Below are positions 277 to 12,043 of a stretch of DNA of 64,000 nt, in pieces. The stretch spans positions 62,001 to 126,000 of the forward strand of contig NZ_AAEW02000008.1 of NCBI RefSeq assembly GCF_000167355.1, given 5' to 3'. This DNA is from Desulfuromonas acetoxidans DSM 684 (lineage in GTDB: Bacteria > Desulfobacterota > Desulfuromonadia > Desulfuromonadales > Desulfuromonadaceae). Numbering within the stretch: position 1 is the first letter of the stretch; each line of letters opens with the position of its first letter. The position numbers were made by a program, and so were the translations under genes. The notes under the pieces were generated by a model that was given only the letters and a program-made list of their open reading frames with translations, was not told the DNA's origin and ran no database searches.

Positions 277-1068
277 TTAGCTGTTGCGTCGCCGAGCCAA
301 AGCCAATCCGATCAGTCCGGCGCCCAAAAGCAGCCAGGTACCGGGCTCGGGAACAACAACGCCGTGTCCCATCAAGTTGTCATTACCGCAGCCCATGGTG
401 AAGTGGGAATAGAATTCCGAACCATGACCGAGGAACGATAGATCAAAGCCGGTGAGCAGATAATGGGTTTCCCCTTCAAAGGCGGTAACCGTGTCATTAA
501 GATTGCTGTCGAGAAAAGCAAAAGAGCCGGTAAGCAATGCGGCATCGTCATTATCTTCAGCATTATACTGCCATGGACTGGAACCTTCGTTCTGCTGATA
601 GTAAGCGGTTTGCAGCACACTTGTCTCATCCAGTTGATAAGCCGTGTAAGATCCCGTTGCCATATCGAGATCAAGGACAAAGTTATAGCCGTAGCTGCCG
701 ATATGGGTGTTGTTGCCATCGGTGTCTGAACGGTGGATGTCGCCGTAAGCGGGGAGATCATTTTCAGAGTCGACAACAGCGATGAAAATATCGCCGGAGG
801 TATAGCCGTTGACACCTGTCGAAAAATTAAATCCACCGGACAAAGACAAGGTGTTTTCGCTATCAATGAAAAAAGCTTCCAGATCCCAGACCTGATTCTT
901 GACCATCCCCGGTTCAACTTCCTGATCTTCACCTGTTCCATACCAAGCTGCGCTGGTTGCGTTGCCGTCGAAGATCGTAATGTCATTTCCCAGAGGTGTG
1001 GCCGAGGCGGGGGCAGCAGTCAGGCCAGCCATAAGGAGAATCAAAGCCGAGATACAGAGGTTTTTCAT
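277..1068 (-). CDS. PEP-CTERM sorting-domain protein
   Basis: A 263-residue exported protein. Residues 1-23 form a signal peptide ending in the cleavage site ASA. The C-terminus carries the PEP-CTERM tripartite signal: VPEP at about residue 239, a hydrophobic stretch, then the basic tail ARRRNS. In this family the signal directs exosortase/archaeosortase processing and retention at the cell envelope. The central 200 residues are acidic and rich in Asn, Asp, Tyr and Gly, as in other extracellular matrix-type PEP-CTERM proteins, and I recognise no catalytic domain. AAGGGA sits 9 bases before the ATG. No exosortase gene is visible in the window. The gene stands alone and ends in a strong terminator. 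Confidence 0.85.
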   Translation of the reverse strand: MKNLCISALILLMAGLTAAPASATPLGNDITIFDGNATSAAWYGTGEDQEVEPGMVKNQVWDLEAFFIDSENTLSLSGGFNFSTGVNGYTSGDIFIAVVDSENDLPAYGDIHRSDTDGNNTHIGSYGYNFVLDLDMATGSYTAYQLDETSVLQTAYYQQNEGSSPWQYNAEDNDDAALLTGSFAFLDSNLNDTVTAFEGETHYLLTGFDLSFLGHGSEFYSHFTMGCGNDNLMGHGVVVPEPGTWLLLGAGLIGLALARRRNS

Positions 1069-3190: not shown

Positions 3191-3646
3191 CTAAGCTTTT
3201 TTTCGCTTTCGTGAGTAATACGCAAGCCCAGCCAGGCCACAGCCGAGGAGCAAAACTGTCGCTGGCTCGGGAACCGCTGAAATTCGAGATTCCGGGATGT
3301 CAAAGAGATAACGGTAACTAGAGCCAAATACGCTACTTGGATAGTCAAAGTCCAGCAGGCTCACGCTATCGACAATCAAGTGTAAAGATCCTCCGTTATC
3401 CAAGCCATCCCCATATGAATCGGTCATGTACAGGGTATAGTCACCCGGGTCGAGGTCCCAATTGTAAGAATACGTATAATGGCTCGTCAGATTTGTCCCC
3501 CCTGCATTAAAAGAGGGGCCAGTAATTGACCAACTTGTCTCATAGCCCCACCCGCCTGCATTGATATCGAAATACACTGGTGTTGCACAGGCTGGGTAAA
3601 TAAAACAGGTTGTGAAAATGAATAGAAGGAATAAGGTTTTTTTCAT
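3191..3646 (-). CDS. Small PEP-CTERM sorting-domain protein
   Basis: A 151-residue exported protein. Residues 1-21 are a signal peptide ending in ACA. The C-terminus has VPEPATVLLLGCGLAG followed by a basic tail (SRKRKKA), which is the PEP-CTERM signal. The middle is a compact beta-rich domain with the segment DPGDYTLYMTDSYGDGLD, similar in style to secreted adhesin-like modules, but I cannot name the domain. I place the start at the ATG at 3644-3646 because CAGGAG lies 5 bases upstream and the signal peptide starts there. A longer in-frame reading from 3691 would spoil the signal peptide. It is a monocistronic gene with its own terminator. Confidence 0.8.
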   Translation of the reverse strand: MKKTLFLLFIFTTCFIYPACATPVYFDINAGGWGYETSWSITGPSFNAGGTNLTSHYTYSYNWDLDPGDYTLYMTDSYGDGLDNGGSLHLIVDSVSLLDFDYPSSVFGSSYRYLFDIPESRISAVPEPATVLLLGCGLAGLAYYSRKRKKA

Positions 3647-3885
3647 AGCAATCTCCTGAACGGCACAAAAAAATATCGTATGCAAAAACATTGGTAACTT
3701 AATGTGTCTATTTGCAAAAATGAAGCCAGTGAAAAGTTTGCCGATAAATCAAAGAGTTGCTCAAGGTTTTTGTGGATAAAACGCGGTCTGTAAAGAAAAC
3801 CGACACCTTTTCAGGATTAAATAGGGAGACTTCTCGGTGTGTGCGGGGCAGAGAACAGAGGCGTTTGTCAACGGAGTGTGTTTGT

Positions 3886-4608
3886 CTAATCGACTACCCG
3901 TTTGCCAATATACGCGCCACCGCGCACGTCGCTTCCCGTGTACTCCTCCACGACTGTCAGCCCGGCCTCGGTCATGGCACTGAGGTAATCCTGACGGGAA
4001 AATAGGCCGATCTCTACCGATTGTTGATGGTAGTTCACATCCGTGCCCTTGCCGATCAGGTGGTGAAAGGTCACTTCGACGATATTCGGTTTCTTAAGGC
4101 GCACTTGCTCCATGCGCGAAATTTTCATATCCGGCTCATCCACGGCGTCGACGACGAGACACTCCTGAAAATCCTCTTTGGTGCTCCATGGCGTGATCAA
4201 CGCAATGCCATTGGGGCGTAGCTGGGCAGCAACCCGTTTCATGGTGGTGCGCAGGTTATCGACCGATTTAACAAAGCCGATGGAACCATACAGGCAGATC
4301 ATGGCGTCGAACTCTGTCTTTACATCAAAATCAATCAGGTTGCCGCGGTGAAAGGTGAGGGAAGGGAATTTTCTTTCTGCTACAGCTAGCATATCCTCGC
4401 TCAGGTCCAGCCCGCTCACCTGATAGTCATCGGTGAAATAGGGGATATGACCACCGGTTCCACAGGCCAGAATCAGCAGATCAGACTGCGGGGCCATACC
4501 ATGCTTGCACAGTAATTCCTTCGTTTTGGCGGCTTCCGGAGCGTATTCCTCGTCTTTGACATACAGATCGTCATAATAAGATGAGATGGTTTCAAAATCA
4601 GAGTACAT
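3886..4608 (-). CDS. SAM-dependent methyltransferase, class I
   Basis: A 240-residue cytoplasmic Rossmann-fold methyltransferase. SAM-binding motif I is ILACGTGGHI (about residues 45-54), followed by the acidic loop GLDLSEDML and the post-I region HRGNLIDFD. Strand 4 carries FDAMICLYGSIGF. The overall pattern resembles small-molecule N- or O-methyltransferases of the TylM1/DesVI type that act on amino sugars or other small amines. The substrate cannot be deduced. The gene has no functional neighbours: PEP-CTERM genes lie on one side and a divergent sigma-28 operon on the other. Confidence 0.75.
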   Translation of the reverse strand: MYSDFETISSYYDDLYVKDEEYAPEAAKTKELLCKHGMAPQSDLLILACGTGGHIPYFTDDYQVSGLDLSEDMLAVAERKFPSLTFHRGNLIDFDVKTEFDAMICLYGSIGFVKSVDNLRTTMKRVAAQLRPNGIALITPWSTKEDFQECLVVDAVDEPDMKISRMEQVRLKKPNIVEVTFHHLIGKGTDVNYHQQSVEIGLFSRQDYLSAMTEAGLTVVEEYTGSDVRGGAYIGKRVVD

Positions 4609-4726
4609 GGCTGATCCCAGTTGGTTATTAACACAAAAATTTTGGTGCTGGGCCGTTGCCCTGTCTGCGCATACAGAAAAAACAAGCTGTTTTATCCATG
4701 GTTATAGACAAAATGACAGTCGCCCA

Positions 4727-4753
4727 TAAAGAATTGTAGTTCTTCGCCGATAA
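4727..4753 (+). promoter_or_regulatory. Sigma-28 (FliA) type promoter
   Basis: TAAAGAAT at 4727-4734, an 11-base spacer, then GCCGATAA at 4746-4753. The -10 element and spacer match the sigma-28 consensus (TAAAGTTT-N11-GCCGATAA) exactly and the -35 differs only in its last bases. It points at the gene starting at 4846. This predicts late (class III) flagellar expression for the following two genes. Confidence 0.8.
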
Positions 4754-4845
4754 GTCGGATAGAGAAGAGCTATCGAACCATCAACGGATTTGCATTGCAA
4801 GGCAAATGTCATCATTGATATCAGAGCTTCTGGGGAGACCGGCGT

Positions 4846-5346
4846 ATGAATGTCACGACAGCTACATCCGCACAAAATGTTTCATCTTCCTACAACCGTC
4901 AGCAAAAAACTTCAACAGAATCGGCCGCAACAACCGTGACTCAGGGTGATACCGTCACCATCTCCGATGAAGCAAAAGCGATCGAGCAGGGCTCCCAATC
5001 ACTTGAGGCGTATCGCCTGCCTGATTGGTATGCGGATATGCTGCCGCTAGCGAGAACAATCGATTTAAGTCAGCAACAGATTGGCGCACCTTATCGTGAG
5101 ACGCAGGCTTATGCGTTTTCACAATTCTCGCAGCAAGATCAGCAGAGCATCAATGATTACAGTGGCAAGCTGTTGACCTTCTTCCATGATGAAGTTGCCC
5201 GTTTGACTGATGATGGTTCTGCGAACTATGTCCAGATTCGCGATTCTGAAGCCTTGCAACAGGCCGTGATGGCACGTTTTGAATCAGACCCGAGTGCCAA
5301 TGCGTTGTTGGAGCGGATGCAAGAACTGGGGCAGATCACCTTATAA
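4846..5346 (+). CDS. Unknown protein, predicted late flagellar regulon (first of pair)
   Basis: A 166-residue protein of no family I recognise. The first 45 residues are Ser/Thr/Gln-rich and look disordered, ending in GDTVTISDEAKAI. This resembles the D-x-V-x-[IL]-S-x-x-A segment seen near the N-termini of FlgM and several flagellar or secreted proteins. Residues 50-166 are helical and acidic, with no signal peptide and no membrane helix. GGGGAG lies 6-11 bases before the ATG. The gene follows a sigma-28 type promoter and is 50 bases upstream of a second unknown gene, so the two form an operon. An attractive guess is export through the flagellar type III apparatus, but only the promoter and the leader composition support it. 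Confidence 0.7.
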   Translation: MNVTTATSAQNVSSSYNRQQKTSTESAATTVTQGDTVTISDEAKAIEQGSQSLEAYRLPDWYADMLPLARTIDLSQQQIGAPYRETQAYAFSQFSQQDQQSINDYSGKLLTFFHDEVARLTDDGSANYVQIRDSEALQQAVMARFESDPSANALLERMQELGQITL

Positions 5347-5396
5347 AGCGTGCGACTCCTGTTTTTCATCATTGCTGCTGACAAGGGAAGAGAATC

Positions 5397-6221
5397 ATGA
5401 CCATTTCTGCAATAAACGCTACCTCCGCGCCATCATCAGTTGCCGCTTCGCAAAAAGCCGATAAATCTGCCGATGATTTTCAAACGGTCTTGGAGCAAAT
5501 AGTCAACGGGCAGCAAAACACAGCCTCTTCGACAGGCCACACCGTTAACACCCAGGCTGATGTGGCAAGGGCAGACGAAGCATTCACTGCCTTTATGGCC
5601 CCAATTGAGCAACGCTCGACCGTCACCATCGACGGCATAAGCGTGATCACATCAGGCCATAGCCTCGACCGAAGGGATGGCGTGTCGCTTTTGGAAACCG
5701 TTTCCGAGTCGGAAAGCCAAGACTTTTTCTCGCAACTGGCCGCCTGTGCCGAAACACATGAATCGGAGAGTAACGCCGCCGTCGATGGCGCAGCATCGGT
5801 GCAAAATGTTCCGGGCATGACGGTCATTGAATCCATCGCTCTTGGACCTCTACCAGATGGTGTCAACTTCACCTATATGGATATCGATCTCTTCAGGCCC
5901 GCCGGGCGATGGGCGGAAGGCCCCTTGCTGCTGCAAACCGACAATGAGAGTCAAGATCCGTATTATCGCCGAAGAACCGAGGAATACATGGAGGTCGTTG
6001 GCGTCGAGCGCCAACTCAAAGAGTCCTACGGTGATGACGTCAAGCTTGTCTATAGCCATACCGATGACGGCTACATCATGCTCACACCGGACGATGCCCG
6101 CTATAATGAGATGCACAGTGCTGAGGCTGGTGTTCAAACCATTATCAACGAAATAAACAGAGGCTTTATCAACAAGGATGCCGTGGCGGATATCCTCGCT
6201 GACTATGGCTACTCGGTGTAG
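5397..6221 (+). CDS. Unknown protein, predicted late flagellar regulon (second of pair)
   Basis: A 274-residue acidic protein of unknown family. The N-terminus (first 60 residues) is rich in Ala, Ser, Thr and Gln and probably disordered. The C-terminal 110 residues look folded, with the segments TEEYMEVVGVERQLKE and YSHTDDGYIMLTPDD and a short helix NEINRGFINKDAVADIL. No signal peptide, membrane helix or catalytic motif is visible. AGGGAAGAGAAT precedes the ATG. The gene lies 50 bases after the gene at 4846-5346 and should be cotranscribed from the sigma-28 promoter. A GC-rich hairpin overlaps the stop codon. Confidence 0.7.
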   Translation: MTISAINATSAPSSVAASQKADKSADDFQTVLEQIVNGQQNTASSTGHTVNTQADVARADEAFTAFMAPIEQRSTVTIDGISVITSGHSLDRRDGVSLLETVSESESQDFFSQLAACAETHESESNAAVDGAASVQNVPGMTVIESIALGPLPDGVNFTYMDIDLFRPAGRWAEGPLLLQTDNESQDPYYRRRTEEYMEVVGVERQLKESYGDDVKLVYSHTDDGYIMLTPDDARYNEMHSAEAGVQTIINEINRGFINKDAVADILADYGYSV

Positions 6222-6237
6222 TGCCGCCTTGCGGCAC
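6221..6237 (+). terminator. Possible terminator hairpin of the sigma-28 operon
   Basis: A 7-bp perfect GC stem (GTGCCGC/GCGGCAC) with a 3-base loop overlaps the TAG stop. Only a short T run follows, so it may be a weak terminator or a stabilising 3' hairpin. Confidence 0.45.
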
Positions 6238-8076: not shown

Positions 8077-8846
8077 GGGGTAAACTAGGGACGCTCCCCG
8101 GGGTAAACTAGGGACGCTCCCCGGTTTTTCTTGGCCTGCCCGGTTTGCGGGGCCTTAATGTGGTCTGCAATGTCTCTTCCATCTTGTCTATAAACCCCTC
8201 AGAACCGAACGGACGACCTGTGCGGGTTGCACTGCGTAAGCCGTCTTCTGCTTTGTCATCACTTTGCATGACAAAATCGGCATAGGCAGTTCTGTCCTTG
8301 CCGTCAAGCCAGGAGGGGGAATGTAAAATATCATCACGGGCAGAGGTAAGATGAGCTCTGGCGCTGGACCAGCGGTAATCTTCCGCCTTTTCCACCGTGC
8401 CCGATTTGACCGGGTTTCGTTCGACATAGCGTGCCGCCGTCCATAGATAGTCATCCTGTTCCACCAGACACGAAAAGAACCGGTTCTGCCAAATGCGCCC
8501 GCTTTGTTTCAATTTTCGATTGAGATATTGCGTATAGACTTGATTTGTCAGGCCGATGCCGCGAGCCAAAGAGTCCTCTTTTTCGGGAACCACAAGCAAA
8601 TGAACATGGTTGTCCATCAAACAGTAGGCCCAAATCTGCAAAGAAAACGCCTTGCTGTATTTTGCCAGCAGCTTGAGGTATTGCTGACGGTCTTCATCGT
8701 CAAAAAAGACGGTCGCGCGGTTATTACCGCGCTGAGTGACGTGGTGGGGATATTCGGGAACGACAATGCGGGCTATTCTTGGCATGAGAGAAGGATAGAC
8801 TTGTTTCGTGTTAAAAGCAATTTAATAGGGGGAGTGTCCCTCGTTT
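8077..8846 (-). mobile_element. REP-associated-type transposase element, copy 1
   Basis: The transposase gene at 8108-8785 is bounded by related inverted termini. The left end reads AAACTAGGGACGCTCCCC and the inverse of the right end reads AAACGAGGGACACTCCCC. Each end is itself a small palindrome around GGGAC-n-CTCCC. The left end is an exact 23-base tandem duplication (8077-8099 and 8100-8122). The right end at 8826-8846 runs straight into an IS30 transposase fragment. Confidence 0.75.
8108..8785 (-). CDS. Y1/HUH transposase, REP-associated type (copy 1)
   Basis: A 225-residue single-stranded-DNA transposase of the transposase IS200-like (Y1) superfamily, subgroup RAYT/TnpA-REP. N-terminal RIVVPEYPHHVTQRGNN is the typical opening. 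The metal-binding HUH motif is HVH in MDNHVHLLVVP, and the candidate catalytic tyrosine is in NQVYTQYLNRKL. The WQNRFFS and RYVERNPVKSG segments are characteristic of the group. The C-terminal tail RPRKPGRPRKTGERP is a basic DNA-binding extension. These enzymes cut and join REP-type hairpins. It is about 95 percent identical by eye to the copy at 9169-9846, and both frames are intact. Confidence 0.85.
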   Translation of the reverse strand: MPRIARIVVPEYPHHVTQRGNNRATVFFDDEDRQQYLKLLAKYSKAFSLQIWAYCLMDNHVHLLVVPEKEDSLARGIGLTNQVYTQYLNRKLKQSGRIWQNRFFSCLVEQDDYLWTAARYVERNPVKSGTVEKAEDYRWSSARAHLTSARDDILHSPSWLDGKDRTAYADFVMQSDDKAEDGLRSATRTGRPFGSEGFIDKMEETLQTTLRPRKPGRPRKTGERP

Positions 8847-9168: not shown

Positions 9169-9846
9169 CTAGGGACGCTCCCCGGTTTTTCTTGGCCTGC
9201 CCGGTTTGCGGGGCCTTAATGTGGTCTGCAATGTCTCTTCCATCGTATCGATAAACCCCTCAGAGCCGAACGGGCGACCCGTGCAGGTTGCGCTACGCAA
9301 GTGGTCTTCAGCTTTGTCGTCACTCTGCATGACAAAATCGGCATAGGCTGACTTGTCTTTGTCATCAAGCCAGGAGGGTGAATGTAAAAGATCATCACAG
9401 CCAGAGGTGAGATGAGCCCTGGCGCTGGACCAGCGGTAATCTTCCGCCTTTTCCACTGTGCCTGATTTGACCGGGTTCCGTTCGATATAGCGTGCCACCG
9501 TCCACAGATAGTCATCCTGTTCAACCAGACATGAAAAGAACCGGTTTTGCCAAATACGACCGCTTTGCTTCAATTTGCGATTGAGATATTGCGTATAGAC
9601 TTGATTTGTCAGGCCAATGCCGCGAGCCAAAGAGTCCTCATTTTCGGGAACCACGAGCAAATGAACATGGTTGTCCATTAAACAATAAGCCCAAATCTGC
9701 AAAGAAAACGCCTTGCTGTATTTTGCCAGCAGTTTGAGGTATTGCTGGCGATCTTCATTGTCAAAAAAGACAGTCGCACGGTTGTTACCGCGCTGAGTGA
9801 CGTGGTGGGGATATTCGGGAACGACAATGCGGGCTATTCTTGGCAT
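9169..9846 (-). CDS. Y1/HUH transposase, REP-associated type (copy 2)
   Basis: A 225-residue second copy of the transposase at 8108-8785, with the same HUH (MDNHVHLLVVP) and tyrosine (VYTQYLNRKL) motifs and the same basic tail. Differences are scattered substitutions such as DNED for DDED, VARYIERN for AARYVERN, and a changed C-terminal third (SGCDDLLHSPSWLDDKDKS). Both copies therefore seem to have evolved under selection rather than being a very recent duplication. The frame is intact and the gene is probably functional. Confidence 0.85.
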   Translation of the reverse strand: MPRIARIVVPEYPHHVTQRGNNRATVFFDNEDRQQYLKLLAKYSKAFSLQIWAYCLMDNHVHLLVVPENEDSLARGIGLTNQVYTQYLNRKLKQSGRIWQNRFFSCLVEQDDYLWTVARYIERNPVKSGTVEKAEDYRWSSARAHLTSGCDDLLHSPSWLDDKDKSAYADFVMQSDDKAEDHLRSATCTGRPFGSEGFIDTMEETLQTTLRPRKPGRPRKTGERP

Positions 9847-10903: not shown

Positions 10904-12043
10904 TCAGGCCGACCCGGTATTTGCCATATAGGCATTAATTGCGGATATATAGTGATTGGTCAGTTCTTGCGTTTCCTGAAAAACCAAATCCAAAGCCGGG
11001 TCGCTCTTGGCTTGCTGACTGGAGCTTAGTCCCCAATCTTTTTCAATGTAAATTCGATTAAACTCCCCTAGATTTTCTGCGTAATGATTGAACATCTCGG
11101 AAATTTGCTCAGAACTATCTCGCTTGATATATTCTGCATTTTCAATCAATCCTTGGAAATAATCCTCTGCCCCTAACAAGCCATTCTCAGAGTTCGAAAT
11201 ACTCTGTTGTAACTTTGCATTGATTTCAAGTCCCTCCTCCAGGGCTTGAATCTCTTCCCCGATAGCTTCGGAAAATTGGGGGAATCGTTGTATTTTTCTC
11301 TCTTGTTGATCAATGTGATCTGTCATGAGTTGCTCTTGAAACGCACGAATTTCAGAGAGAAAATTGCTATATTCCTCTTTTAACCCATCGCTCATCGGCA
11401 ATTTTGCAATGGCCTGAGCAGCAACTTCATAATCGTAATTTGCTTTAAACAGAGAGAAACTTGAGTTTAGATAGTTTCTCGAAGAGCGAATGGCAGAATC
11501 CATTGCCCCTGTGATGGTCGCCTGATCTTGCCCGGAAAGTTCTTCTGAAGCCTTTGTTGTGAGCTGGTCCAGTTTTTCAGTCAGATGATCGGTTTCATGA
11601 ATGTCACCGCTCGAACTTAAAGCTTCGTGGAAACTCCATTCGCCAATCAATGTCGAGCCGGAGTACTGGATAATAATCTCTGAATCGCTGGCAACTCCTC
11701 CGGTAATCGGCCCCACGTCATTTATTCGCGCTTCCAGTTCTGGGTCAACTGTAAGCCTGAAAGTTTCACTATTCGGAGGGTTTCTTAACCATTGAAGAAA
11801 ATTTTCGTCAAAAAACGCCTCGTCTGATTGCTCCAGGGCGTCAACAAATTTACCCCTCTCTGTGTCTGAAAGGCCAAAAGCATATGTTTGTAGATTGAGC
11901 TTGAATTGGGCTTCAGATGAAAAATGAACTGTATCCTCTCTGCCCGCTTCAACCTTGCTGTCAATACGATCAAAAGCTTTACTGTCAAGAGTTAAAGCCT
12001 CTAAATTGGCTGATTTGTTAAAAGCGGTATTGATGGTGTTCAT
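10904..12043 (-). CDS. Unknown protein, long helical, flagellin-like leader
   Basis: A 379-residue acidic protein without signal peptide or membrane helix. Residues 30-45 (GREDTVHFSSEAQFKL) resemble the D-x-V-x-[IL]-S-x-x-A segment of the sigma-28 operon protein at 4846. The rest is mainly helical and probably coiled coil, with long stretches such as EEYSNFLSEIRAFQEQL and EAIGEEIQALEEGLE. I recognise no domain. The start is the ATG at 12041-12043 with GGAGG 10 bases upstream. Upstream DNA was replaced 39 bases before the start by an IS30 remnant, so the native promoter may be lost. It could be a secreted or flagella-related protein, but this rests only on the leader resemblance. Confidence 0.65.
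   Translation of the reverse strand: MNTINTAFNKSANLEALTLDSKAFDRIDSKVEAGREDTVHFSSEAQFKLNLQTYAFGLSDTERGKFVDALEQSDEAFFDENFLQWLRNPPNSETFRLTVDPELEARINDVGPITGGVASDSEIIIQYSGSTLIGEWSFHEALSSSGDIHETDHLTEKLDQLTTKASEELSGQDQATITGAMDSAIRSSRNYLNSSFSLFKANYDYEVAAQAIAKLPMSDGLKEEYSNFLSEIRAFQEQLMTDHIDQQERKIQRFPQFSEAIGEEIQALEEGLEINAKLQQSISNSENGLLGAEDYFQGLIENAEYIKRDSSEQISEMFNHYAENLGEFNRIYIEKDWGLSSSQQAKSDPALDLVFQETQELTNHYISAINAYMANTGSA

What the first reader, a model, noticed from the sequence alone, without database searches (positions are those of the whole stretch)
4727..6221. Unknown two-gene operon placed in the late flagellar regulon by a sigma-28 promoter
TAAAGAAT-N11-GCCGATAA at 4727-4753 fits the sigma-28 consensus with exact spacing and perfect -10. 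Behind it are two proteins (166 and 274 residues) that I cannot assign, about 50 kb from the flagellar genes. The first has a disordered Ser/Thr/Gln leader with a FlgM/flagellin-like GDTVTISDEAKA segment and no Sec signal, compatible with flagellar type III export. A third protein (10904-12043) has a similar leader segment (DTVHFSSEA). A set of flagella-exported proteins of unknown task would be new.
Basis: partly seen in the sequence, partly recalled or inferred. Interest (0 to 1): 0.62.

Follow-up and report, generated by a model that had tools for sequence, protein, structure and literature searches.

The report
Flagellar-sigma operon of two orphan proteins
In some Desulfuromonas-type bacteria two proteins of unknown family sit behind a conserved flagellar (sigma-28) promoter, and one begins like proteins known to be exported by the flagellum, so they may be cargo of the flagellar export channel, which is untested.

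Summary
TAAAGAAT-N11-GCCGATAA lies at 4727-4753, 92 bases before a 166-aa ORF, with a 274-aa ORF behind it. In the four loci found in the genus the boxes are conserved (15 of 16 columns invariant) while the spacer drifts (4 of 11). The genus's own flgJ and flgM-operon promoters share the core TAAAG-N16/17-CGATAA; 144 kb of the contig holds three such sites: those two and this one. Both ORFs are under purifying selection and match no family above cut-off.

Export is plausible, not shown. ORF1 has the most S/T/N/Q-rich N-terminus of 128 ORFs called, and its leader weakly resembles FlgM. The leader motif recurs in a SprA-related protein, a family whose Campylobacter member needs the flagellum to reach the supernatant (PMC5223770). 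The third protein (10904-12043) has the motif but no sigma-28 site found upstream.

New: the ORF2 C-terminal part is nearly identical in three genomes (dS 0-0.009, ORF1 0.26-0.32), so it was exchanged recently; a related domain is fused to another N-terminus in Desulfobacter. Best reading: a sigma-28-driven, probably flagellum-exported orphan pair, like the Campylobacter Feds in logic.

The parts
4727..4753 (+). sigma-28 (FliA) promoter: TAAAGAAT-N11-GCCGATAA
   Evidence: boxes conserved in 4 loci with drifting spacer; same core as flgJ and flgM-operon promoters
4754..4845 (+). untranslated leader of ORF1, by distance from the promoter
   Evidence: no RNA structure beyond shuffles in the 3 loci folded
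4846..5346 (+). ORF1, 166 aa orphan; residues 1-55 a disordered S/T/Q-rich leader with GDTVTISDEAKA
5397..6221 (+). ORF2, 274 aa orphan; residues 70-274 form the domain shared with Desulfobacter vibrioformis
5673..6196 (+). tract of ORF2 identical to G009 and differing at one base from the BM513 contig: recent recombination
10904..12043 (-). third protein, 379 aa, with leader motif DTVHFSSEA; relation to the operon unproven, no sigma-28 site found upstream

Best explanation
ORF1-ORF2 is a late-class flagellar operon read by FliA (sigma-28) once FlgM has left the cell. Shown by sequence: the promoter and its conservation, FliA and FlgM genes in the genome, purifying selection on both ORFs. Inferred: ORF1, and probably ORF2, are taken up by the flagellar type III export gate through their unstructured N-termini (ORF1's weakly resembles the N-terminal half of FlgM) and leave the cell as non-structural cargo. 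The exchangeable ORF2 C-terminal domain would then act outside the cell or on the filament. Its target is unknown; my guess, from the exchange between species, is contact with other cells, surfaces or phages.
For: Box conservation with drifting spacer in four loci (15 of 16 against 4 of 11; Fisher P 0.003 against the rest of the intergenic region). Same core and 16-base spacing as the flgJ promoter in four genomes. FliA (TIGR02479, E 9e-81) and FlgM (TIGR03824, above cut-off) on the same contig. ORF1 N-terminus ranks 1 of 128 for S/T/N/Q, ORF2 11 of 128; 16 flagellar substrates chosen by me outscore 110 other ORFs, AUC 0.93. Each of 4 ORF1 leaders matches FlgM or the FlgM-associated DVU0524 family at E 0.01-0.19; 10 of 10 shuffles match nothing. 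Motif also in a SprA-related protein, whose Campylobacter relative needs the flagellum to reach the supernatant.
Against: No expression or secretion data. All leader matches are below curated cut-offs; MoaC and FliE also appear for one leader, the leader half of the genome's true FlgM matches nothing, and Pfam FlgM appears for only 1 of 4 ORF1 leaders. An Aeromonas SprA-related protein lacks the motif. PMC5223770 states that no conserved export sequence had been found among non-flagellar C. jejuni proteins. Flagellin genes occur in all 4 carriers but also in 8 of 10 family genomes without ORF1, so flagella alone do not predict the operon.
Confidence: 0.5

Rival explanations
1. Sigma-28-driven but not exported: the two proteins are cytoplasmic motility-linked factors (regulator, chaperone or motor accessory) made together with the filament, and their S/T/Q-rich N-termini are merely disordered.
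For: The promoter evidence fits equally well. The leader resemblance to FlgM is weak, and composition is a crude measure: 5 of 110 other ORFs score as high as ORF2.
Against: ORF1's N-terminus exceeds all 126 other ORFs compared, with flagellar substrates at the top of the list. Exchange of the ORF2 domain between species is more usual for exposed than for internal proteins (inference).
Confidence: 0.37
2. The sigma-28 match is coincidence or decayed, and the operon is read by another sigma factor with no link to motility.
For: Loose sigma-28 patterns are not clearly enriched genome-wide (11 against 7); a better match stands before a transposase-like ORF in G009; a weak sigma-70-like site overlaps at 4705-4734 (9 of 12, within chance).
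Against: Both boxes are kept while the spacer drifts in four loci, with the core and spacing of the genus's flagellar promoters.
Confidence: 0.1
3. ORF1 is a FlgM paralogue, a second anti-sigma-28 factor.
For: Its leader matches positions 10-59 of the 98-position FlgM model (E 0.027).
Against: The match covers only the N-terminal half of the model; nothing FlgM-like follows, and the genome has its own FlgM above cut-off.
Confidence: 0.03

Closest known systems
Campylobacter jejuni Feds (flagellar co-expressed determinants)
   Same: Non-flagellar proteins whose production and secretion depend on sigma-28, as described in the introduction of PMC5223770 (passage; the original Feds paper is not held).
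   Different: Sigma-28 control here is from sequence only and export is untested. No sequence comparison with the Feds was made; ORF1 and ORF2 match no family above cut-off.
FlgM (anti-sigma-28 factor, itself a flagellar export substrate)
   Same: N-terminal leader resemblance around D-x-V-x-[IL]-S-x-x-A.
   Different: Below cut-off; only the N-terminal half aligns; the rest of ORF1 is unrelated by the searches made.
SprA-related family (PF12118; C. jejuni CJM1_0395)
   Same: A member in genome G481 of the same order carries DTVKISDEA; CJM1_0395 is flagellum-dependent in supernatants of two strains.
   Different: ORF1 and ORF2 do not match PF12118. The Aeromonas member fetched lacks the motif.
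DVU0524 family FlgM-associated protein (NF041863)
   Same: Matches 3 of 4 ORF1 leaders at E 0.01-0.09.
   Different: Below the cut-off of 40 bits; ORF1 is not next to flgM; no paper on DVU0524 in the library.

Membership tests
FliA (sigma-28) regulon | promoter with sigma-28 boxes and spacing | tested here: met
FliA (sigma-28) regulon | FliA encoded in the genome | tested here: met
   TIGR02479 E 9e-81
FliA (sigma-28) regulon | transcription lost without FliA | not testable with these tools
   needs a mutant
non-structural cargo of flagellar type III export (Fed-like) | unstructured N-terminus without Sec signal | tested here: met
   AF2 pLDDT below 50 over residues 1-56, in a poor model
non-structural cargo of flagellar type III export (Fed-like) | flagellum-dependent secretion | not testable with these tools
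   needs supernatant comparison
FlgM | match above the curated cut-off of PF04316 or TIGR03824 | tested here: not met
   best 15.8 bits against 40.75; PF04316 14.1 against 25
FlgM | C-terminal sigma-binding half | tested here: not met
   whole-protein match ends at profile position 60 of 98
SprA-related (PF12118) | PF12118 domain | tested here: not met
   no such match for ORF1, ORF2 or the third protein at E up to 5
DVU0524 FlgM-associated family (NF041863) | match above the curated cut-off of 40 bits | tested here: not met
   best 16.2 bits

The most novel reading that the evidence does not exclude
Free-living Desulfuromonas-type bacteria export a small set of orphan proteins through the flagellum: a FlgM-like leader delivers different passengers, at least one of which (the ORF2 C-terminal domain) is exchanged between species like an antigen or effector module.
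Probability: 0.25. Interest if true: 0.75.

Novelty: new variant of a known kind. Interest (0 to 1): 0.5.

Why it matters
Non-structural cargo of the flagellar export system is described, in the papers seen here, from pathogens such as Campylobacter. A sigma-28-controlled orphan pair in Desulfuromonas-type bacteria, with a passenger domain exchanged between species, would suggest that flagella of such bacteria also serve as secretion devices. It offers two testable candidates, a second one on contig C10, and a leader motif to look for.

Tried and rejected
Families: Pfam, NCBIfam and PHROGs gave nothing above cut-off for ORF1, ORF2 or the third protein; the best sub-threshold hit was YfcL for the third protein, E 0.007. 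PDB sequences: nothing at E up to 5 for ORF1, two hits at E 0.6 for the ORF2 C-terminal domain (ORF2's N-terminus was not searched there). tblastn of both ORFs in phages and plasmids: no match. Viral contigs: 57 and 76 pattern stretches, none confirmed. A sample of 395 genomes of the phylum held no carrier besides the own genome.

AlphaFold2 models had mean pLDDT 49.6 and 46.4, so no fold search was run. RNA structure in the 5' leader: the three leaders folded are no more stable than shuffles (z 0.66, 1.56, 2.02). The third protein as regulon member: no site of 12 or more matches upstream. The C7 leader protein: no site of 11 or more within 350 bases in 4 genomes. The Desulfobacter fusion gene: best site 12 of 16 at 237 bases, not convincing. 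A constraint from an overlapping reading frame as cause of the identical ORF2 tract was rejected, as G008 differs there by 10-28% per 100 bases. The order-wide motif count as a whole is not enriched (15 against 13 controls in 136 genomes); only the genus is (11 against 1), and one of those 11 is ribosomal protein L6 by eye. The looser motif in the own genome is not enriched (7 against 5).

Full report
What is there. TAAAGAAT-N11-GCCGATAA lies at 4727-4753, ORF1 (166 aa) at 4846-5346 and ORF2 (274 aa) at 5397-6221, all on the plus strand. A methyltransferase-like gene (best NCBIfam E 1.4e-11, below cut-off) starts at 4608 and runs the other way. Right after ORF2 a 7-bp inverted repeat (6221-6237, by eye) could end the transcript, but it lacks a good T run and the terminator scan did not list it.

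Are the genes real? Yes. dN/dS is 0.11-0.20 for ORF1 and 0.20-0.27 for ORF2 against three relatives. ORF1 occurs in 4 of 14 genomes of the family, all in one genus (4 of 10 there). ORF2 follows it in the four loci compared: window, L003, L006, L007. A sample of 395 genomes of the phylum held no other carrier. Genome contigs gave two loci out of 30 candidate stretches: L003, a Desulfuromonas MAG contig (BM513) of the same length as the G004 contig and probably the same, and L004, Desulfobacter vibrioformis, where 205 C-terminal residues are 61% identical but fused to a different 322-residue N-terminus.

Is the promoter real? The exact pattern occurs once in the genome. In the alignment of four loci 15 of 16 box columns are invariant, against 4 of 11 in the spacer and 129 of 221 in the intergenic region outside the boxes (spacer included; Fisher P 0.003). 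I then aligned the regions upstream of flgJ and of the operon that holds flgM in G000, G007, G008 and G009. In both, TAAAG and CGATAA stand out, 16 and 17 bases apart. The ORF1 site has the 16-base spacing. On 144 kb of the contig TAAAG-N16/17-CGATAA occurs three times (flgJ, flgM operon, ORF1), against a mean of 0.03, at most 1, in 60 Markov sequences. This pattern was written after seeing the ORF1 site, so the count is partly circular; the conservation in four loci is not. Against: a looser pattern is not clearly enriched genome-wide, 11 against 7, and G009 has a 15 of 16 match before a transposase-like ORF. FliA and FlgM are encoded on the same contig. Flagellin genes occur in all four carriers, but also in 8 of the 10 family genomes without ORF1.

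Is export likely? By S/T/N/Q count in residues 2-31, ORF1 ranks 1st, ORF2 11th and the third protein 22nd of 128 crude ORFs. Sixteen flagellar substrates, which I listed from gene order and sequence, outscore 110 other ORFs (AUC 0.93); the 110 include some spurious ORFs and 5 of them score as high as ORF2. The three proteins have no hydrophobic signal core. ORF1 leaders matched FlgM (TIGR03824) in 3 of 4 loci and the FlgM-associated DVU0524 family (NF041863) in 3 of 4, at least one in each, E 0.01-0.19, all below cut-off; ten shuffles matched no family. The C7 leader matched FlgM at E 0.056; the leaders of the third protein and of L004 matched nothing, nor did the N-terminal half of the genome's true FlgM, so the measure is insensitive. 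For one ortholog MoaC (E 0.047) and FliE (E 0.19) also appeared. Pfam FlgM appeared for 1 of 4 ORF1 leaders. A review passage says that an N-terminal FlgM signal can carry non-flagellar proteins out by the flagellar route (PMC7911332, passages).

The motif. D-T-V-x-[hydrophobic]-S-x-E-A, searched as DNA, gives three proteins in the genome, in each within the first 50 residues: ORF1, the third protein and a 225-aa protein on contig C7. In the 10 genus genomes there are 11 matches against 1 control; in the other 126 genomes of the order 4 against 12. Of the 11, three are ORF1, three the third protein, four the C7 protein and one ribosomal protein L6 (by eye). One of the four others, in G481, is a SprA-related protein (PF12118 E 2.5e-41; Pfam FlgM E 0.022 at its motif). 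The Campylobacter member, CJM1_0395, was present in wild-type but not flgG supernatants in two strains (PMC5223770, passages). An Aeromonas SprA-related protein lacks the motif, and the same paper states that no conserved export sequence was known among the non-flagellar C. jejuni proteins. The link is suggestive only. The third protein lies 5.5-8.1 kb from ORF1 in G000, G008 and G009, and was found only there among 14 family genomes.

A mosaic passenger. Between the window and G009, ORF2 bases 277-800 are identical; the BM513 contig differs at one. Synonymous divergence over codons 93-266 is 0.000 and 0.009, against 0.26-0.32 in ORF1, while G008 stands at 0.61 there. Recent recombination of this part of ORF2 between species is the best reading. 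With the Desulfobacter fusion it marks the ORF2 C-terminus as an exchangeable module.

A second candidate. The genome search also gave TAAAG-N17-CGATAA at G000:C10:86544, 41 bases before a 184-aa orphan starting MSSVSASSLS (no Pfam family above cut-off), followed by a chemoreceptor-like gene (dCache_2 E 3e-28).

Verdict. I put the sigma-28 promoter at about 0.9 and export, given the promoter, at about 0.6. The logic resembles the Campylobacter Feds (known here from the introduction of PMC5223770); the proteins are orphans by the searches made. In nine searches of the held library I saw no listing on this system; I saw listings only, except passages of PMC5223770, PMC7911332 and PMC2725144. The last notes a FliA gene in Geobacter sulfurreducens.

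Noticed in passing
G000:C10:86544 (L014:1501-1528; L091:3045-3668): A TAAAG-N17-CGATAA site 41 bases before a 184-aa orphan with a Ser-rich start, followed by a chemoreceptor-like gene: a second candidate sigma-28-driven orphan.
   Followed up: partly
window 5673-6196: ORF2 tract identical to G009 and one base from the BM513 contig, flanked by sequence at ordinary divergence: recent recombination between species.
   Followed up: yes
L036:975-1649 (G000:C7 near 174228; L073:8700-9377): 225-aa protein with leader motif DTVQISAEA, found with the motif in G000, G007, G008 and G009; weak FlgM leader match, no strong sigma-28 site.
   Followed up: partly
L028, upstream of flagellin genes at C8:157445, 160344 and 162399: Leaders hold GGGCA[CT]GGAAGCCC, a GGA-loop hairpin by eye, then ATGGAGGA; csrA- and fliW-like genes lie just upstream of the flagellins. 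Looks like CsrA-controlled flagellin translation (recalled; not folded).
   Followed up: no
window 8108-8785 and 9169-9846: Two nearly identical 225-aa ORFs that look like REP-associated (IS200-type) transposases (recognised, not searched).
   Followed up: no
window 277-1068 and 3191-3691: Two minus-strand proteins ending in PEP-CTERM-like sorting signals (recognised, not searched).
   Followed up: no
L072:10460: A 15 of 16 sigma-28 match (spacer 12) just before a transposase-like ORF in G009: a likely false positive and a warning about box matches alone.
   Followed up: no
L004:5035-6615: Desulfobacter vibrioformis 527-aa fusion of the ORF2 C-terminal domain to another N-terminus, whose residues 74-168 match hypothetical proteins in 3 Sphingobium/Sphingomonas plasmid records at 37%; transposase-like ORFs lie upstream (recognised).
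   Followed up: partly
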